The notes below the pieces were generated by a model, which saw only the letters and a program-made list of their open reading frames with translations, did no database searches and was not told where the DNA came from. Of a stretch of 64,000 nucleotides of DNA, positions 1-17,663 are shown one piece after another (position 1 is the first letter of the stretch; the number at the start of each line of letters is the position of its first letter). The DNA comes from a virus. The stretch lies in IMG/VR virus record IMGVR_UViG_3300025645_000037, positions 1-64,000 of that record; one strand, given 5' to 3'. The position numbers and the translations under genes were made by a program.

Positions 1-100
1 TTGGTACATCAAAGGCATCAGGTACAGCTTCGACAAATGGCTTGAACACACCGATTATACCGAAGCACAAAAAACGTTAATGAGGTTACAATATGCGTAA
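1..100 (+). CDS. MORN-variant-like repeat protein, C-terminal end only (array gene 1)
   Basis: Only the last 32 codons are inside the window (frame begins at base 2). They encode the terminal module shared by every gene of this array: a WY.KG last repeat, an F.KWLE segment and the closing peptide MRLQYA. The stop TAA at 98-100 lies inside the start of the next gene, giving the 8-base overlap ATGCGTAA (93-100). This shows that the array continues to the left of the window. Function unknown. Confidence 0.8.
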   Translation, partial: WYIKGIRYSFDKWLEHTDYTEAQKTLMRLQYA

Positions 101-440
101 TGGATTGACCATAACCGAAAATGGCACTAAGTCTTGGTATCAAAACGGAGAACTACATCGTGTTGACGGGCCAGCAGTTGAATATCCAAATGGCCGCAAG
201 ATGTGGTATCAAAACAATCTACTACATCGCGAAGATGGACCAGCAGCTGAATGGAGCGATGGCACCAAGGAGTGGTATCAACACGGGCAACGACACAGAA
301 TAGATGGTCCAGCAGTTGAACATTCAAGCAGCACCAAGTTGTGGTTCATCAAAGGCGATATATACAGCTTCGACCAATGGCTTGAACACACCGATTATAC
401 CGAAGCACAAAAAACGTTAATGAGGTTACAATATGCGTAA
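93..440 (+). CDS. MORN-variant-like 23-residue repeat protein (array gene 2, 3 units)
   Basis: 115 aa. It begins MRNGL, carries three units of the pattern W-Y-x-N/H-G-x-x-H-R-x-D-G-P-A-x-E with a 23-residue (69-base) period, and ends with the shared module F.QWLEHTDYTEAQKTLMRLQYA-type tail (about residues 85-115). The repeat resembles the MORN_2/YwqK-type variant repeats found in bacterial and giant-virus proteins; that assignment is by pattern only. No signal peptide or membrane segment is seen. It overlaps both neighbours by 8 bases, so translation is probably coupled along the array. Function unknown. Confidence 0.75.
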   Translation: MRNGLTITENGTKSWYQNGELHRVDGPAVEYPNGRKMWYQNNLLHREDGPAAEWSDGTKEWYQHGQRHRIDGPAVEHSSSTKLWFIKGDIYSFDQWLEHTDYTEAQKTLMRLQYA

Positions 441-987
441 TGGATTGATCATAGAAGGAGATGGAACCAAGACTTGGTATCAAAACGGCCAACTACATCG
501 AACGGATGGTCCAGCTGTTGAATATGCAGATGTCCACAAGGAGTGGTATCAAAACGGAGAACTACATCGAATTGACGGACCAGCAGTTGAATTCGCAGAT
601 GGCACCAAGGAGTGGTATCAACACGGAGAACTACATCGAATTGACGGACCAGCAGTTGAATATGCAACTGGCAAAAAGGTGTGGTATCAAGACGGAGAAC
701 TACATCGAACAGATGGCCCGGCAATCGAGCGCTCAAGTGGCACCAAGGAGTGGTATCAACACAACCGACTACATCGAATTGATGGCCCAGCGATTGAATA
801 TGCAACTGGCAAAAAGGTGTGGTATCAAGACGGAGAACTACACCGAACAGATGGCCCAGCTATTGAGCGCTCAAGTGGGACCAAAAAGTGGTACTTCGAA
901 GGCGTTAGGTGTTCCTTTGGCGACTGGATTGAACTTGTTAACATCACCGAAGTAGAAAAAACAATGATGAGGTTGCAGTATGCGTAA
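433..987 (+). CDS. MORN-variant-like repeat protein (array gene 3, 6 units)
   Basis: 184 aa with six HR-x-DGPA units; the fourth and sixth units are nearly identical (both followed by ERSSGTK), a sign of recent internal duplication. It has the same N-terminal MRNGL and the C-terminal tail ending MRLQYA. Its size exceeds the 115-aa gene by exactly three 23-residue units. The start at 433 is fixed by the repeated junction: the Shine-Dalgarno-like GAGG lies inside the codons for the previous gene's MRL, and the ATG overlaps the previous stop by 8 bases. Confidence 0.75.
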   Translation: MRNGLIIEGDGTKTWYQNGQLHRTDGPAVEYADVHKEWYQNGELHRIDGPAVEFADGTKEWYQHGELHRIDGPAVEYATGKKVWYQDGELHRTDGPAIERSSGTKEWYQHNRLHRIDGPAIEYATGKKVWYQDGELHRTDGPAIERSSGTKKWYFEGVRCSFGDWIELVNITEVEKTMMRLQYA

Positions 988-1534
988 TGGATTGATCGTA
1001 GACATTCAAGGTGCTAAGGTGTGGTATCAAGATGATCTACTACATCGAGACCAAGGACCAGCAGTCGAATATGCAAATGGCCGCAAGGAGTGGTATCAAC
1101 ACGGGCAACGACACAGAACAAATGGACCAGCGATTGAACGGAACGATGGCACCAAGCAGTGGTATTTCGAAGGCCGACTACATCGAACAGATGGCCCAGC
1201 GATTGAATGGTACAACAGCGACAAGGAGTGGTATTTCGAAGGCCGACTACATCGAACAGATGGCCCAGCGATTGAACGCGCAAGCGGCGGCCGGTATTGG
1301 TATCAACACAACGGACGACACAGAACAGATGGCCCAGCGATTGAACGCGCAAGCGGCGACCGGTATTGGTATCAAAACAATCAACTACACCGAACAGATG
1401 GACCAGCTATTGAATACGCAAATGGCAATCAGCGTTGGTTCCTTAAAAGTGAACCGTTTTTTTTAAATGACTGGCTTGAACACGTCAATTACACAGAAGT
1501 ACAAAAAACAATGTTGAGGTTGCAGTATGCGTAA
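980..1534 (+). CDS. MORN-variant-like repeat protein (array gene 4, 6 units)
   Basis: 184 aa, six units. Two adjacent units have WYFEGRLHRTDGPAIE and two later ones share ERASG.RYWYQ, showing unit-level copying within the gene. N-terminal MRNGLIVD is shared with genes 5 and the two minus-strand copies near 17 kb. The C-terminal tail contains F.LNDWLE and ends MLRLQYA. Function unknown; coupled by 8-base overlaps to genes 3 and 5. Confidence 0.75.
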   Translation: MRNGLIVDIQGAKVWYQDDLLHRDQGPAVEYANGRKEWYQHGQRHRTNGPAIERNDGTKQWYFEGRLHRTDGPAIEWYNSDKEWYFEGRLHRTDGPAIERASGGRYWYQHNGRHRTDGPAIERASGDRYWYQNNQLHRTDGPAIEYANGNQRWFLKSEPFFLNDWLEHVNYTEVQKTMLRLQYA

Positions 1535-1943
1535 TGGATTGATCGTAGACAAAAATGGCACCAAGATTTGGTACCAAAACGACCGACGACACAGAACAGA
1601 TGGACCAGCAGTTGAATGGCACAACGGCGACAAGCATTGGTATTTTAAAGGCCGACTACACCGCACTAATGGTCCAGCAGCTGAATATGCAAGTGGCGGC
1701 AAAGAGTGGCATCAACACGGCCAGCGACACAGAACAGATGGACCAGCAGTTGAATTCGCTGCGGGCGACCGGTATTGGTATCAAAATGATCTACTACACA
1801 GAACCACCGGACCAGCTATTGAATACGCAAATGGCAACCGGCGTTGGTTCCTTAAAAATGAACCACTTTTTTTTAATGACTGGCTTGAAGAGGTCGCTTT
1901 CAACGAAGTACAAAAAACAATGTTGAGGTTGCAGTATGCGTAA
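1527..1943 (+). CDS. MORN-variant-like repeat protein (array gene 5, 4 units)
   Basis: 138 aa, four HR-x-x-GPA units, i.e. exactly one unit longer than the 115-aa member. Same N-terminal MRNGLIVD and C-terminal MLRLQYA. The tail NEPLFFNDWLE closely matches that of gene 4 (SEPFFLNDWLE), so genes 4 and 5 look like sister copies that differ by two repeat units. Function unknown. Confidence 0.75.
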   Translation: MRNGLIVDKNGTKIWYQNDRRHRTDGPAVEWHNGDKHWYFKGRLHRTNGPAAEYASGGKEWHQHGQRHRTDGPAVEFAAGDRYWYQNDLLHRTTGPAIEYANGNRRWFLKNEPLFFNDWLEEVAFNEVQKTMLRLQYA

Positions 1944-2490
1944 TAGAATGATCACAAACAAATCCGGCGACCGGTTTTGGTATCAAAACGGTCTACTACA
2001 TCGCGACGATGGGCCAGCAGTTGAATACCCAGATGGCAACAAGGAGTGGTATCAACACGGCTTACTACATAGAATTGACGGACCAGCAATCGAATTTGCA
2101 GATGGTGATAAGGAGTGGTATCAAAACGGGCAACGACACAGAACTGATGGCCCAGCTGCTGAACGTGCAAATGGCACTAAGATGTGGTATCAAAACGGAG
2201 AACTACATCGAATTGACGGACCAGCAGTTGAATACGCAAGTGGCACCAAGGAGTGGCATCAAAACAATCAACGACACAGAACAGCTGGACCAGCAACTGA
2301 ATACGCAAATGGCGATCGGGCTTGGTATCAAAACGGAGAATTACACCGAACCGACGGTCCGGCAGTTGACCGCGTAAGTGGTTCTAAGCTTTGGTACTTC
2401 AGAGGCGTCGAGTACAACTTCATTGATTGGCTCGAACACGCCAATTACACAGAAGTAGAAAAAACATTAATGAGGTTACAATATGCGTAA
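1936..2490 (+). CDS. MORN-variant-like repeat protein (array gene 6, 6 units)
   Basis: 184 aa with six units; the fifth reads HRTAGPATE and the last HRTDGPAVDR, so units drift individually while spacing stays fixed. It begins MRNRMITN, a diverged form of the MRNGL start, and ends with the invariant MRLQYA. The overlap with gene 7 is again ATGCGTAA (2483-2490). Confidence 0.75.
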   Translation: MRNRMITNKSGDRFWYQNGLLHRDDGPAVEYPDGNKEWYQHGLLHRIDGPAIEFADGDKEWYQNGQRHRTDGPAAERANGTKMWYQNGELHRIDGPAVEYASGTKEWHQNNQRHRTAGPATEYANGDRAWYQNGELHRTDGPAVDRVSGSKLWYFRGVEYNFIDWLEHANYTEVEKTLMRLQYA

Positions 2491-2764
2491 TGGAGTAGCT
2501 ACACTTGCAAGCGGCGACCGGTATTGGTATCAAGACGGATTGCTGCACAGAACTGATGGACCGGCAGTTGAATATGCAAATGGCGAATACAGTTGGTGGT
2601 TCGAAGGCCGACTGCATCGTGTTGACGGCCCAGCAGCTGAATATACAAATGGCGACCGACATTGGTTTTATAAAGGCAAACCACTTTTATTTGACGAGTG
2701 GCTTGAACTAGTCGACACATACACCGAAGTAGAAAAAACATTAATGAGGTTACAATATGCGTAA
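2483..2764 (+). CDS. MORN-variant-like repeat protein (last gene of the array, 2 units)
   Basis: 93 aa with two HR-x-DGPA units followed by the shared tail F.EWLELVDTYTEVEKTLMRLQYA-type end. It is the shortest complete member of this array and the last one. Its stop again overlaps an ATGCGTAA at 2757-2764, but the reading frame begun there is only 18 codons long, so the array stops here. Function unknown. Confidence 0.75.
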   Translation: MRNGVATLASGDRYWYQDGLLHRTDGPAVEYANGEYSWWFEGRLHRVDGPAAEYTNGDRHWFYKGKPLLFDEWLELVDTYTEVEKTLMRLQYA

Positions 2765-2813
2765 TCAACAAAGCTATATGTACACAAAACAAAAGGAAAA
2801 ACAAAATGTCTGA
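2757..2813 (+). other. Truncated array-junction ORF (18 codons), remnant or coupling leader
   Basis: The canonical junction ATGCGTAA starts an 18-codon frame (MRN then QQSYMYTKQKEKQNV) that ends at TGA 2811-2813, just inside the next real gene (ATG at 2806). It keeps the MRN start but has no repeat unit. It may be what is left after loss of a further array member, or a leader that hands ribosomes to the gene at 2806. Confidence 0.4.
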
Positions 2814-3608: not shown

Positions 3609-4982
3609 ATGAATGATAAAGAATTTACGAATATGGTAAAACGATTTGCAAAATACGCAGTAGCATCTGTAGTAGTTCTATTCGTGGCACTTTCGACTTG
3701 GTTTACTACCAGTGAAGGGTATTTGTACTATGTGCAAAACAAACTCACGGGCTCTACTACTGTTTACTCGGAACCGGGTGTGCACTTGAAGATGCCATTG
3801 TTTACTAATATCTATGAATACAAACGTGTTGCAACAATTGATATGACCATGGAAGACGGTAACTTTACTCGAAACCTTGGTGCAATTAATGTCGGCTTTG
3901 CGGATACTTACACAGGCACAGTTCCTGCAACGTTCCGTTATCGTTTGCCTGTAGATGAAGAGAACTTCCGAAAGCTGCACCAAGATTTCCGAAGCTTTGA
4001 CAACTTGGTAGATACTTTGCTTGTTAACAACTCTCGCAACGTTGCAGTTGTTACAGCAACTCAGTACACAGGTGAAGAATTCATCCAAGGTGGAGTTAAC
4101 GCTTACAAAGCACAAATGGAAGATCAACTTTCAAATGGTCTATATGTAACAAAGCGACAGCAAGTTGAAGTTACAGAAAGCGGATATGCTGATGTATCAA
4201 GCACAAACTCAAACGCTAATCTTGTTGAAAACGAAATTCGACTTGTGATGAAAAATGTGATCGTCATTGACGAGACTTCGGGACAACCTCGGCGACTTGA
4301 GAATCCTATGGCAGAATACGGTATCCAAGTTACGCAGGTAACAATTGGTAAACCTACAGCAGATTCTCAACTTGAAACATTGCTTGACCGAAAGCGTCAA
4401 TCGGTTGGTGAAAAGATTACTGCTCAACAGGAAATCGACACAAACCGTGTAAAGGCAGAAGCAGCAAAGCAAGAGCGCGAAATTGATAAGCAAAAAGCTA
4501 TTCAAGATGCTCAGAAGGAAAAAGAACTTGCAACTATCCAAGGTCAGCAACGTGTTGAAGTAGAGCGCCAGCAAGCCTTGCAAGAACTTGTAAAGCAACA
4601 AAAAGAGAAAGATGTTGCTGTGATCCAAAAGGAAAAGGAACTTGCTATTGCCGAAGCTAACCGCGGTATCCAAGAAGCTGCTGCACAAGCTGCAAAGTTT
4701 GAAGGTATGGCAATCCGCGAAAAGGGTCTAGCCGAAGCAGATGTTGAACTTGCTAAATTGAGTGCAAAGCAATCAGCTAAGGATATCTATATGGCAGAAA
4801 TCGAACGTGACATTGCTCGGGTTATGTACCCTGCGCTGAAAGATGTTACTATTGACATGCCAGACTTCTACAGCGGCGGTAGCGGCGCAGAAGCACCAAC
4901 ATCACTTGATGTGTTTACTACGCTCGGCGCACTGAAGAACCTGGAAGACCGCGCAGCAAAAGAAGCACCGCGATTTAAATAA
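3609..4982 (+). CDS. SPFH/prohibitin-like membrane protein
   Basis: 457 aa. One N-terminal transmembrane helix (about residues 15-32), then a prohibitin/stomatin-type domain (about 35-250), then a long Glu/Lys/Gln-rich coiled coil (about 260-400) in which AAKQEREIDKQKA and similar heptads are clear. Prohibitin homologs are known in marine T4-like phages; family members form large ring assemblies on membranes and influence proteases or membrane domains. The phage version's target is unknown. It is followed by a strong terminator at 5001-5027 and is preceded by the exported small protein under the same promoter. Confidence 0.8.
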   Translation: MNDKEFTNMVKRFAKYAVASVVVLFVALSTWFTTSEGYLYYVQNKLTGSTTVYSEPGVHLKMPLFTNIYEYKRVATIDMTMEDGNFTRNLGAINVGFADTYTGTVPATFRYRLPVDEENFRKLHQDFRSFDNLVDTLLVNNSRNVAVVTATQYTGEEFIQGGVNAYKAQMEDQLSNGLYVTKRQQVEVTESGYADVSSTNSNANLVENEIRLVMKNVIVIDETSGQPRRLENPMAEYGIQVTQVTIGKPTADSQLETLLDRKRQSVGEKITAQQEIDTNRVKAEAAKQEREIDKQKAIQDAQKEKELATIQGQQRVEVERQQALQELVKQQKEKDVAVIQKEKELAIAEANRGIQEAAAQAAKFEGMAIREKGLAEADVELAKLSAKQSAKDIYMAEIERDIARVMYPALKDVTIDMPDFYSGGSGAEAPTSLDVFTTLGALKNLEDRAAKEAPRFK

Positions 4983-6053: not shown

Positions 6054-6084
6054 GAACAAAAGAAACATACACAGAGAGAAGACA

Positions 6085-6738
6085 ATGCCAGCAATTAAAG
6101 TATACAAAGCAAATGGACTAGTTATTCCATTTGAGGAAGCAAAAGTCGGCAAGGCATATCGTTGCCCGTTTACTAATAAAATTTACAGTACAAAACGTGC
6201 ATACGTGACGCATCTGCAAAAGTACCGCGCGACTACTATTCGTAGAAATAATTCAAAGCAACGTTGGCAACGAAAATTAGAGAATCTAAGGAACCAAACT
6301 AGTATTGACAATATTATTCAATGGATCGAAATGAATCCAGAATTTTTTATCAATAACATAATCCTAGACAGTTTTGCAGACGACCGAAAATATCTAGAGA
6401 GTATTATTTGTGATTTTAACATCACTGTTACTAGACTTGTACTCAATTATAGCAATAATGTAAGCAACTCGCATTCTGCCCCGTTTGGCAAACGGACCAA
6501 CTGGGGCGGCAGAGTAAAAGATGCACCAAGGGGATATCCCGGATGGCAAGGTTCTATTAGTTTTACAATGAGTCATGAAGTGCCTAGCTTCACTACTAAT
6601 ATGTTCAATAACACTGGAATCAACATAGGAAGTGGCGGGGGCGGTGGCCTTAAATTTCAATACACGGTGGAACTCTTTGAAGATGACTGGCCTGGTCTTG
6701 CAAAATCACGAACACTAGACATTCTAAGTCAGAAATAA
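6085..6738 (+). CDS. Paralog A: hypothetical protein sharing the 71-bp block
   Basis: 217 aa from ATG 6085 (RBS GAGAGAAG). Residues about 27-50 (YRCPFTNKIYSTKRAYVTHL) look like a degenerate zinc-finger-type segment with only one Cys. Residues about 70-217 are paralogous to the whole product of 7058: both have WIE/VN...F near the start, SAPFGKRTNWGGRVKDAPRG in the middle, a Gly-rich GSGGGGG segment and end with a DDWP motif. Identity outside the central block is modest by eye, but the block is identical at the DNA level. Function unknown. Confidence 0.6.
   Translation: MPAIKVYKANGLVIPFEEAKVGKAYRCPFTNKIYSTKRAYVTHLQKYRATTIRRNNSKQRWQRKLENLRNQTSIDNIIQWIEMNPEFFINNIILDSFADDRKYLESIICDFNITVTRLVLNYSNNVSNSHSAPFGKRTNWGGRVKDAPRGYPGWQGSISFTMSHEVPSFTTNMFNNTGINIGSGGGGGLKFQYTVELFEDDWPGLAKSRTLDILSQK
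6477..6547 (+). repeat. 71-bp block, copy 1 (identical to 7264-7334)
   Basis: Every base matches 7264-7334. The block contains the hairpin-forming palindrome ccgtttggcaaacgg (6-bp arms) and the perfect 10-bp palindrome gggatatccc. It is read in the same frame in both genes (SAPFGKRTNWGGRVKDAPRG plus YPGW). Confidence 0.95.
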
Positions 6739-7057: not shown

Positions 7058-7591
7058 ATGGACAAATTTGCAGAACTTTGGCAACAACCTAGCTTTGAAA
7101 AAATAGCCGAATGGGTTAATATTAATTCCAATGTGTTCCTGTTAAACGCATTAGGAAACAATAGTAATTATCGATATTTGTATAACAGAATAGTCAACGA
7201 CTTTCGTATTGAAGTCACTTACCTCGAAGGACGCTGGAGCGAAGTAGTTTCGAACAATCATAGTGCCCCGTTTGGCAAACGGACCAACTGGGGCGGCAGA
7301 GTAAAAGATGCACCAAGGGGATATCCCGGATGGCGTTCAAGAATTGAATTTTGTATAACTCACAATCTTCCGGTTTTTGCAAAGGACCTTTTTCAAGGAA
7401 GTCGCATCCGGCTTGGCACAGGAAGTGGCGGCGGCAACAACCGGTTTGGGTACAGCACTGAGTTTTTTGCCGATGACTGGCCTAAATTAGTCGAACGAAT
7501 AGAAATTCAAAAGACTCATTCTATTATGTCCGATATTCCTTTCAACCCGAAAATAACATTCGGACAACCTAGATATTTTGCAACTTTCTAG
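7058..7591 (+). CDS. Paralog B: hypothetical protein sharing the 71-bp block
   Basis: 177 aa. It aligns over its full length with the C-terminal two thirds of the product of 6085 (WVNINSNVFLL against WIEMNPEFFIN, the shared central block, GTGSGGG, and FADDWPKLV against FEDDWPGLA) but lacks the N-terminal degenerate finger. It has its own early promoter. No known family recognised. RBS is poor: no clear Shine-Dalgarno lies before ATG 7058. Confidence 0.6.
   Translation: MDKFAELWQQPSFEKIAEWVNINSNVFLLNALGNNSNYRYLYNRIVNDFRIEVTYLEGRWSEVVSNNHSAPFGKRTNWGGRVKDAPRGYPGWRSRIEFCITHNLPVFAKDLFQGSRIRLGTGSGGGNNRFGYSTEFFADDWPKLVERIEIQKTHSIMSDIPFNPKITFGQPRYFATF
7264..7334 (+). repeat. 71-bp block, copy 2 (identical to 6477-6547)
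   Basis: Second copy of the block, 716 bases after the end of copy 1. Sequences immediately outside it (6548 onward against 7335 onward) no longer match, so the edges of identity are sharp. Confidence 0.95.
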
Positions 7592-8671: not shown

Positions 8672-9046
8672 ATGAAATGGTATCTTTTCCTCGATGACAT
8701 TAGAACACTAGACCAAGCAAAGGTTTCGTATGAAAAGGACGAACTACTGATCATTGCTCGCAATATGGATGATGCTATTTTCTATGTTACTCGTTACGGC
8801 ATTCCGCAGGTTGTACATTTCGACCACGATCTTGCTGAAGAGCATTACGTACAAGGCCATGGCGACAAGACAGGCTACGACTTTGCTCGCTGGCTGTGTG
8901 ATCATATTCTTGATAATGATCTTGACTTTCCTAAGGATTTCCACTATACTGTACATAGTATGAACCCAGTTGGTAAAGAAAAGATTATCAGCTATATGAA
9001 TAATTTTATGAAACACTTAAAAGAAGAGAGACGGAAACAGAAATGA
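8672..9046 (+). CDS. Cyclic-phosphate processing receiver-like domain protein (cREC)
   Basis: 124 aa. LFLDDIR at the N-terminus, a middle FDHDLAEEH, GYDFARWLCDHI, and a C-terminal VHSMNPVGKEKI reproduce the signature of the cREC family (receiver-fold domain predicted to process cyclic phosphates on nucleotides or RNA ends). The acidic residues D8, D9, D50 and D52 form a plausible metal site. In bacteria the family is linked to RNA repair and conflict systems; the role in phage is inferred. RBS AAAGGGT is present. ATGA couples it to the next gene. Confidence 0.75.
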   Translation: MKWYLFLDDIRTLDQAKVSYEKDELLIIARNMDDAIFYVTRYGIPQVVHFDHDLAEEHYVQGHGDKTGYDFARWLCDHILDNDLDFPKDFHYTVHSMNPVGKEKIISYMNNFMKHLKEERRKQK

Positions 9047-14923: not shown

Positions 14924-15895
14924 TTACTCCTTTGTCTCCCAAATTCCGTCTATGTTCACACGCTGATTATACCGCGCTAGAACTGCACCTATCGCAGACC
15001 CTGGGTCGCCTGGATTTACCGGTACATGTACATTATGCCATTGATTTCGAATTTTGTCAACCGCTCTTTTATTCATTGCTCCGCCACCTGCAAGTGCAAG
15101 ATTTGGTGATCCAGTTAGATACACTGCTTTAGACGACAAATGACTGATGCAATCTTCAAATACTGATTGTGTTGCCGCTGCAATGCGTTTTCGATCCTTA
15201 AATTTTTTAAGATCTGGACGCCAGTCTTTGTATCCTTTGTGCAAGTTTTGCTTCATCTTAATAAACGGAGCAGTGTCTTGTATTTCCAAAATATCTTCGT
15301 AGATAGCAGGAACAAGAGAATCAATACCTTTTACTGGATCGCCGAGTGCTGCTAACAAATGTTCATCTTGTTGCGGCGTGCCGCCGGCGCGCTGAACCAT
15401 AGCTGAATAAAACAAACCAAGACTATGCGGATAGTTTTGTGAATAGACTTTAGTAAGCCGCCAGTCTTTGTCGCCTTTCCACATCGTTAATGTTTCAAAC
15501 TCTCCAATTGAGTCAAGACAGATTATTGCACAGTCGGCATACGGTTGCGTATAGTAAGCATATGCTGCATGACTGAGGTGGTGTTTGGTATAGACGATAG
15601 GAATGTCGCATAAATTACGTTCTGCAAGATATTGCTTGATGTTGTTTTCTTTTAGCAACCATCCTTGCCCTGCACGCCATTGTCGTAGAGTTTTTAACAA
15701 AGGTTTTTCATACCAGACTACTTGATCCGGGTAACCGACATTTTCTATTGCTCCTTGAATAAGCTCTTCGGTGATGTCAGAGTTATTGGCTAACTTTGCC
15801 CATTTTGGTGTTAATGTTTTACCGTCGTGTGTAAAACCGGCAATGCTTGCGTCATGGCTGTTACCAGTCATTCCCCAGATAATTTTTGTTGTCAT
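14924..15895 (-). CDS. Carbamoyltransferase (NodU/CmcH-type, core domain only)
   Basis: 323 aa. G-x-x-x-x-HDAS at the N-terminus, KHHLSHAAYAYY near 104, DSIGEFET near 129, the PHSLGLFYS segment and a late PGDPGSAIGA are hallmarks of the Kae1-like catalytic domain of O-carbamoyltransferases. Usual family members (about 550 aa) have an additional C-terminal domain that is missing here. The family transfers carbamoyl from carbamoyl phosphate to a hydroxyl. Position between gp41 and gp61 suggests a DNA-related substrate such as a hydroxymethyl pyrimidine, which is an inference. Confidence 0.85.
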   Translation of the reverse strand: MTTKIIWGMTGNSHDASIAGFTHDGKTLTPKWAKLANNSDITEELIQGAIENVGYPDQVVWYEKPLLKTLRQWRAGQGWLLKENNIKQYLAERNLCDIPIVYTKHHLSHAAYAYYTQPYADCAIICLDSIGEFETLTMWKGDKDWRLTKVYSQNYPHSLGLFYSAMVQRAGGTPQQDEHLLAALGDPVKGIDSLVPAIYEDILEIQDTAPFIKMKQNLHKGYKDWRPDLKKFKDRKRIAAATQSVFEDCISHLSSKAVYLTGSPNLALAGGGAMNKRAVDKIRNQWHNVHVPVNPGDPGSAIGAVLARYNQRVNIDGIWETKE

Positions 15896-17003: not shown

Positions 17004-17032
17004 ATTATAACATTATTTCAGTGTACTGTCAA
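17004..17032 (-). promoter_or_regulatory. Strong sigma70-type promoter of the primase operon
   Basis: Minus strand TTGACA (17032-17027), 17 bp, TATAAT (17009-17004): consensus in every position, with TGT before the -10. Only 6 bases separate the -10 from the primase ATG. Confidence 0.8.
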
Positions 17033-17041
17033 GATTTTCCA

Positions 17042-17323
17042 TTACGTATATTGCAATCGTATCATTGTTTTTTCTACTTCTGTACATGTGTCAACACGCT
17101 CAAGCCACTCGTTGAAGTCGTGCTCGACGTCTTTGAGGAACCAAAGGTTGACGCCATCTGCATATTCAACAGCTGGGCCATCTGTTCGATGTAGCTGATT
17201 GTTTTGATACCACACCTTGGTGCCATCTGGATGTTCGACTGCTGGTCCATCTTCGCGATGTAGTAGATTGTTTTGATACCAAGTCTTGGTTCCATCTTCG
17301 TCTACGATTAATCCATTACGCAT
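17042..17323 (-). CDS. MORN-variant-like repeat protein (minus-strand pair, 2 units)
   Basis: 93 aa, same length and unit count as the last gene of the 5-prime array. Starts MRNGLIVDEDGTK and ends MIRLQYT instead of MRLQYA: the usual ATGCGTAA after it is ATACGTAA, so the next start codon has been lost. Overlaps its upstream partner by 8 bases (17316-17323). Function unknown. Confidence 0.72.
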   Translation of the reverse strand: MRNGLIVDEDGTKTWYQNNLLHREDGPAVEHPDGTKVWYQNNQLHRTDGPAVEYADGVNLWFLKDVEHDFNEWLERVDTCTEVEKTMIRLQYT

Positions 17324-17663
17324 ACTGTAACCTCATCAATGTTTTTCGTGCTTCGGTGGCGTCGACCTGTTCAAACCATAGGTTTAATGAAAGTTGTTCC
17401 CCGTTGAAATACCACACCTTGGTGCCATCTGGATGTTCGACTGCTGGTCCGTCAATTCGATGTAGTCGGCCGTTTTGATACCACACCTTTTTGCCATCTG
17501 CATATTCAACAGCTGGTCCATCTGTTCGATGTAGCTGATTGTTTTGATACCACGCTTTGGTGCCATCTGTCCATTCAACTGCTGGTCCATCTTCGCGATG
17601 TAGTAGATTGTTTTGATACCAAGTCTTGGGTCCATCTTCGTCTACGATTAATCCATTACGCAT
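17316..17663 (-). CDS. MORN-variant-like repeat protein (minus-strand pair, 3 units)
   Basis: 115 aa, three HR-x-DGPAVE units; ends with the invariant MRLQYA. The N-terminal 20 residues are nearly identical to its partner (MRNGLIVDEDG, then TWYQNNLLHREDGPAVE), so this is a recent duplication. It has its own extended -10 promoter at 17685. RBS AAAGGAC. Confidence 0.75.
   Translation of the reverse strand: MRNGLIVDEDGPKTWYQNNLLHREDGPAVEWTDGTKAWYQNNQLHRTDGPAVEYADGKKVWYQNGRLHRIDGPAVEHPDGTKVWYFNGEQLSLNLWFEQVDATEARKTLMRLQYA

What the first reader, a model, noticed from the sequence alone, without database searches (positions are those of the whole stretch)
1..2764. Self-similar operon: seven repeat genes chained by an invariant 8-base stop/start overlap
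Each of the seven plus-strand genes ends with a codon set for (M)RLQYA and its stop overlaps the next start as ATGCGTAA (93, 433, 980, 1527, 1936, 2483, 2757). The codons for MRLQ also hold a GAGG that sits 7-8 bases before the next ATG, so the C-terminal peptide doubles as the next gene's ribosome site. Gene lengths are quantised in 23-residue units (93, 115, 138, 184 aa for 2, 3, 4, 6 units). Because unit length is a multiple of 3 and every junction is identical, whole units or whole genes can be gained or lost by homologous recombination without breaking frame or coupling. This looks like a built-in expansion/contraction system for repertoire or dosage. The repeats resemble MORN-variant (MORN_2-like) repeats, but function is not known.
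Basis: partly seen in the sequence, partly recalled or inferred. Interest (0 to 1): 0.85.

Follow-up and report, generated by a model that had tools for sequence, protein, structure and literature searches.

The report
Chained MORN-fold repeat genes in phages
A large bacterial virus carries rows of short, similar genes built from one 23-residue building block and joined so that the end of each gene holds the translation start of the next; related viruses differ by whole blocks, so this looks like a modular gene set that can grow, shrink and reshuffle without breaking.

Summary
At 1-2764 lie six complete genes and the 3' end of a seventh, made of 23-residue repeats and joined by identical 8-nt ATGCGTAA stop/start overlaps. 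A GAGG sits 7 nt before each ATG, inside the tail codons. Its last tail, with no gene after it, has lost both the GAGG and the start codon.

The repeats are a sequence-divergent MORN type: the AlphaFold model (pLDDT 94.7) matches MORN proteins at the top of the PDB. Similar chains occur in many uncultivated phages, each with its own tail peptide and junction (8, 7, 4 or 1-nt overlaps, or short gaps). The SD-in-tail device is one of several solutions. In a related 317-kb phage (terminase 54% identical) all 12 array genes measured are exact multiples of 23 residues.

Near-identical phage contigs differ by 69, 138 or 207 bp inside repeat genes, and gene heads and tails look reassorted, so unit gain/loss and shuffling are supported. 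Whole-gene gain/loss between near-identical phages was not caught. The molecular role is unknown; a diversified set of protein-binding surfaces is my best guess, not shown.

The parts
2..100 (+). 3' end of array A gene 0 (cut by the contig start); tail LMRLQYA and junction
   Evidence: sequence
93..440 (+). array A gene A1, 115 aa, 3 MORN-like units
   Evidence: ORF, repeat count
433..987 (+). array A gene A2, 184 aa, 6 units; contains a two-unit internal duplication
980..1534 (+). array A gene A3, 184 aa, 6 units
1527..1943 (+). array A gene A4, 138 aa, 4 units
1936..2490 (+). array A gene A5, 184 aa, 6 units; AlphaFold model pLDDT 94.7, MORN fold
2483..2764 (+). array A gene A6, 93 aa, 2 units
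2467..2490 (+). example junction: TTAATGAGGTTACAATATGCGTAA, tail codons LMRLQYA with GAGG 7 nt before ATG 2483 and the 8-nt stop/start overlap; same pattern at 93, 433, 980, 1527, 1936 and 2757
2757..2812 (+). 18-codon ORF begun by the last junction; its stop overlaps gene 2806-2982 as ATGTCTGA
17316..17663 (-). array B gene B1, 115 aa, 3 units; entry gene with SD AAAGGA (anti-SD pairing -5.3)
17042..17323 (-). array B gene B2, 93 aa, 2 units; terminal tail MIRLQYT with AGG changed to CGA and the next ATG to ATA
17004..17032 (-). consensus sigma-70-type promoter (12/12, spacer 17) just after array B, in front of the primase gene

Best explanation
Two tandem arrays of paralogous MORN-fold repeat genes in a T4-like myophage. 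Translation passes along each array by termination-reinitiation: a ribosome ending at TAA finds a start codon in the 8-nt overlap and a GAGG written in the tail codons, so the array is translated from its entry gene (inferred from anatomy). All units share one 69-bp period and all junctions are identical, so an in-register unequal exchange inside the array should leave intact genes and an intact chain (a structural consequence, argued). Such exchange does happen at the level of units (shown in related phages). The products are small beta-repeat proteins with a fixed scaffold, a few fast-changing positions per unit and a common helical C-terminal cap. Most likely they are a diversifying set of protein-binding modules used against host factors (a guess, about 0.35 on its own). 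The confidence below is for the anatomy, the coupling and recombination by units, not for the molecular role.
For: Junction and tail conservation with AGG at 8 of 8 against 2.5-3% elsewhere; decay of SD and ATG at the terminal B2 tail; similar loss at the ends of other arrays (L136 twice, L066, L139, L074, L110, L309 twice); chains with array-specific constant junctions in many phages; in G017 entry genes have an SD and internal ones do not, as expected if internal starts depend on coupling; 12 of 12 measured G017 genes are exact multiples of 23 aa; contigs identical over 12,567 nt that differ only by 207 bp = 3 units, and a 99.07% pair that differs by 69 and 138 bp; head and tail distances uncorrelated, fitting exchange within genes; MORN fold; overlaps of -8 nt lie in the range of termination-reinitiation (PMC10666635).
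Against: No expression data. -8 overlaps couple less well than -4 (PMC10666635). The unit indels come from metagenome assemblies, where repeats can collapse. No near-identical pair differs in gene number. Terminal tails keep their ATG in G000 array A and both G017 arrays (a short ORF follows) and L141 keeps its SD. The positional test of diversification used columns picked for variability.
Confidence: 0.7

Rival explanations
1. Passive repeat expansion: the array is a by-product of slippage and recombination at 69-bp repeats in a recombination-rich phage. Identical junctions only reflect recent common descent, and neither coupling nor variety is selected.
For: Copies are clearly paralogous; -4/-8 overlaps arise readily in compact genomes (PMC3887535; PMC10666635); in-frame repeats expand without obvious function in other elements (PMC9879509).
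Against: AGG is fixed while neighbouring synonymous sites drift, and SD plus ATG are lost where no gene follows; strong constraint at scaffold positions (pN/pS 0.18 and 0.07) shows that the proteins are used; the chain pattern recurs with unrelated tails.
Confidence: 0.15
2. Fixed-ratio assembly: the chained genes make subunits of one heteromeric filament or ring, and coupling serves stoichiometry and co-translational assembly.
For: Overlapping gene pairs are enriched for subunits of heteromeric complexes (PMC10666635); MORN1 proteins dimerise tail-to-tail through C-terminal repeats (PMC7725318); a common cap is kept on all subunits.
Against: Gene and unit number vary strongly between arrays (2 to about 16 genes, 1 to 15 units), which does not fit a fixed assembly; single-gene forms exist (Celeribacter phage P12053L; an 848-aa fused form in L017).
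Confidence: 0.2
3. Dosage: the array simply makes more of one protein activity, gained by recombination under pressure, as in gene accordions.
For: Identical junctions and tails make copy-number change easy; copy-number change of gene arrays is known in poxviruses (PMC6115191, title and abstract).
Against: Copies differ by 32-48% from A5 in protein sequence and differ in unit number, with change concentrated at certain positions.
Confidence: 0.12

Closest known systems
MORN repeat proteins (TbMORN1, TgMORN1, PfMORN1, MORN4, junctophilins)
   Same: Predicted fold; best PDB matches (Foldseek E 2e-7, probability 1.00); 23-residue period with W/Y, G and D/N-G positions
   Different: HR-x-x-GPA-x-E core; Pfam MORN_2 is below its cut-off for the window proteins; genes occur as chained paralogues; helical cap
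Pfam DUF6745 (PF20530)
   Same: Two window genes pass the cut-off (43.8 and 36.6 against 27 bits)
   Different: Only about 20 of 206 profile positions are matched, i.e. the repeat motif, not the domain
Overlapping gene pairs coupled by termination-reinitiation (e.g. trpBA)
   Same: Stop/start overlap in the -8 to +6 range, SD inside the upstream gene (PMC10666635)
   Different: Here the same junction is repeated between many paralogues and is part of the repeating gene unit
In-frame amino-acid tandem repeats of Borg elements
   Same: Unit lengths divisible by 3; unit number varies within populations (PMC9879509)
   Different: Those are near-perfect repeats tied to disordered regions; here diverged repeats, a folded protein and chains of several genes

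Membership tests
MORN repeat proteins (fold level) | Tandem beta-hairpin units of about 23 residues stacked into an elongated sheet | tested here: met
   AlphaFold pLDDT 94.7, pTM 0.82; the top PDB matches are MORN1, junctophilin and MORN4; TM-scores of 0.37-0.52 are moderate because solenoid curvature differs
MORN_2 (PF07661) sequence family | Pfam score above the curated cut-off | tested here: not met
   Window proteins 13.2 and 10.7 bits against 29.6; relatives L064 and L014 pass with 32.9 and 32.2
DUF6745 (PF20530) | Match over the 206-position domain | tested here: not met
   Scores pass for two genes, but only about 20 profile positions are covered
Termination-reinitiation coupled genes | Stop and start within -8 to +6 nt on one strand | tested here: met
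   8-nt overlap at all junctions
Termination-reinitiation coupled genes | Downstream translation depends on upstream translation | not testable with these tools
   Needs reporters or ribosome profiling
Recombining, contingency-type repeat loci | Unit number differs between near-identical genomes | tested here: met
   207-bp, 69-bp and 138-bp indels confined to repeat ORFs; assembly artefact not excluded; shown in relatives, not in this phage
Recombining, contingency-type repeat loci | Gene number differs between near-identical genomes | tested here: inconclusive
   No near-identical pair with different gene number was found; 16 records, 14 of them with terminase about 80% identical, lack the family
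Known anti-phage defence proteins | Match to a PADLOC model | tested here: not met
   No match for two array genes, four neighbours and two relatives

The most novel reading that the evidence does not exclude
Many uncultivated large phages carry a register-locked cistron array: paralogous MORN-fold binders whose tail codons carry the next gene's start (and often its SD), so that recombination keeps producing new, fully translated sets of binding surfaces against changing host targets - a phage analogue of a combinatorial repertoire.
Probability: 0.3. Interest if true: 0.85.

Novelty: new variant of a known kind. Interest (0 to 1): 0.62.

Why it matters
Each ingredient is known (MORN fold, overlap coupling, in-frame repeats). 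Their union into chains of up to about 16 adjacent paralogous genes, with array-specific constant junctions, recurs across many phages, and I found no description of it in the papers searched. Short-read assemblies handle such genes badly: a long-read marine data set held MORN repeats 37 times more often than assemblies (PMC9238414). If it is a repertoire, it opens a testable route to what large phages target in their hosts; if not, it is still a natural series for studying translational coupling, with internal and terminal junctions as built-in controls.

Tried and rejected
Close relatives of this phage with the same array: none found. The junction pattern AGGYTNCARTATGCNTAA gave 27 viral contigs, none with the repeats. 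Phages sharing the SPFH gene at 56-71% (L033-L036) show no match to the other flanking genes tested, and the two searched in full (L033, L034) lack the family. Fourteen records with terminase about 80% identical, two of them 237 and 275 kb, also lack it; records may be incomplete. A sequestering hairpin at the junctions: opening energies of 3.6-8.3 kcal/mol overlap those of ordinary gene starts in the window (1.3-10.7), so no special structure. Whole-gene duplication as the only process: disfavoured because head and tail distances do not correlate (only 8 and 12 genes). Function by domain fusion: no Pfam domain in the non-repeat parts of L019, L032 or L097. Sequence relatives of solved structure: only weak matches to designed TIM barrels. 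Defence models: none. A promoter in front of array B was not called by the scan, so none is claimed. NCBIfam PRK11443 'lipoprotein' matches are far below their cut-off. In bacterial genomes the repeats occur too but two-gene-plus chains were few in the loci held (L145, L147, L186, L189); these were not followed.

Full report
WHAT WAS CHECKED. The window is the first 64 kb of a 187,282-base virus record. A search of the whole record found a second array, B1 17663-17316 and B2 17323-17042 on the minus strand, with the same MRNGL start, ATGCGTAA junction and RLQY tail. No further copy was found in the 187 kb. The phage is a T4-like myovirus by its genes: terminase, tail sheath, portal, UvsX, DnaB-type helicase and primase and a T4 gp15-like protein.

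THE JUNCTION. In all eight tails followed by an ATG the codons are (TTA/TTG/ATG)-(ATG/TTG)-AGG-(TTA/TTG)-(CAA/CAG)-TAT-GCG-TAA. AGG makes up 2.5-3% of Arg codons in the array bodies and in 14 large ORFs of the window, yet is fixed here while neighbouring synonymous sites drift. Computed anti-SD pairing is about -6.3 kcal/mol at the array A junctions. The one tail with no gene after it (B2) reads ATGATACGATTGCAATATACGTAA: AGG has become CGA, the next ATG has become ATA, and pairing is +0.3. Shared descent makes a p-value from the eight tails meaningless, but the B2 tail is a natural control in the direction expected if SD and ATG are kept only where they are used.

COMPARISON WITH OTHER PHAGES. 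Among the loci kept, about 30 chains of three or more repeat genes were found. Each has its own near-constant junction: 8-nt overlap ATGCGTAA/ATGCTTAA with tail ELVLTYA/HYA (L064, phage G017); ATGGATAA, ATGCCTAA and similar (L122); ATGA with tail WKLLQ (L074), ILKWSS (L027), RTEEG with GAGGAGGG (L097) or LFxLDSV (L309); 7-nt ATGGTAG (L068); TGAGATG with GAGG in the tail (L136); gaps of 4-5 nt (L085), or of 8 and about 40 nt (L076). Roughly half have an SD in the tail; the rest do not. In G017 the two entry genes have an SD (-5.8, -3.9) while internal junctions do not (-2.8). At array ends the tail often changes: both L136 ends, L066 and L139 lose the SD; L074, L110 and both L309 ends lose the start; in L136, L110 and L139 a TTGACA-like box lies at or next to the stop codon. 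L141 keeps its SD at the end, so this is a tendency.

THE CLOSEST ARRAY. G017 (317 kb) shares a 54%-identical terminase with this phage. It has arrays of nine and four genes on opposite strands, and all 12 genes measured are exact multiples of 23 residues, 69 to 230 aa. Its second array starts in an 8-nt ATGCGTAA overlap with an unrelated gene ending GKRYA, as if the array had landed with its junction. Overlap geometry and the MRNGL start are thus shared with this phage, the tail peptide and the SD are not.

GAIN, LOSS AND SHUFFLING. L067 and L071 are identical over 12,567 aligned bases except for 207 bp (3 units) inside a repeat gene. L075 and L095 (99.07%) differ by 69 and 138 bp, again only there. 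L017 and L018 (95%) differ by 144 bp, which would be two units of 24 residues. Assembly collapse could explain some of these. Whole-gene differences between near-identical phages were not seen. Pairwise distances of gene heads and tails are uncorrelated in both G000 and G017, which fits exchange within genes. Records with about 80%-identical terminase lack the family.

THE PROTEIN. The A5 product is predicted with pLDDT 94.7. The best PDB matches are MORN1 of Trypanosoma, Toxoplasma and Plasmodium, then junctophilins and MORN4. Among viral models, matches with about 34-53% identity occur in uncultured phages and in mimivirus and megavirus relatives. The tail LMRLQYA is the end of a C-terminal helix (173-183), so the junction codons also code for part of the cap. 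Unit positions W1, H8, R9, G12, P13, A14 and E16 are (nearly) fixed; positions 6, 10, 17, 18, 21 and 23 vary most in this phage. pN/pS at the variable positions is 0.96 here and 3.8 in G017, against 0.18 and 0.07 at the others. Those columns were picked for variability, so this suggests but does not prove diversifying selection.

MECHANISM. Shown: anatomy, codon bias, decay at the B2 end, unit indels in relatives, predicted fold. Inferred: translation is handed along by termination-reinitiation; -8 overlaps are the third most common in prokaryotes, lie in the coupling range and couple less well than -4 (PMC10666635), which may be why an SD is added here. Guessed: the proteins are a set of binding modules. 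The MORN1 study re-evaluated lipid binding, found no membrane-binding surface and described tail-to-tail dimers through C-terminal repeats (PMC7725318), so a fixed-ratio assembly is a live rival.

VERDICT. It was undersold in one way (it recurs in many phages and there is a second array here) and oversold in another (the SD in the tail is one local solution, gene-level expansion is unproven, function is open). It is a new variant built of known kinds.

Noticed in passing
window 2757-2812; L305 2216-2248; L307 minus strand from 4530: The last junction of three arrays opens a short ORF (18, 10 and 10 codons: MRNQQSY..., MRNKIIKELK, MRNRIIKNKY); in two of them its stop overlaps the next gene's start (ATGTCTGA, ATGA), as if to hand the ribosome on.
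   Followed up: partly
L136 4685 and 6487; L110 4299; L139 3036; window 17032-17004: At several array ends a TTGACA-like -35 box of the next promoter lies at or just after the stop codon of the last repeat gene.
   Followed up: partly
window 6079-6738 and 7058-7591: Two neighbouring paralogues of unknown family share the stretch NNHSAPFGKRTNWGGRVKDAPRGYPGW; no Pfam match.
   Followed up: no
window 3609-4982: SPFH/Band 7 gene of 457 aa close to array A (Pfam E 3e-15).
   Followed up: partly
window 8672-9046: Cyclic-phosphate processing receiver domain (cREC_REC, E 3e-20).
   Followed up: no
window 14924-15895: Nol-like carbamoyltransferase gene next to the DnaB-type helicase (PHROG 1601, E 6e-26).
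   Followed up: no
L093 1966-3123 and L123 4018-4704: Repeat proteins with a twin-arginine-like N-terminus (NRRGLFKSGILGLIAPSVAKA), which would suggest export.
   Followed up: no
G025 (locus L076), both ends of the contig: A 204-kb record has repeat genes at both contig ends, as if the assembly was cut within one array.
   Followed up: no
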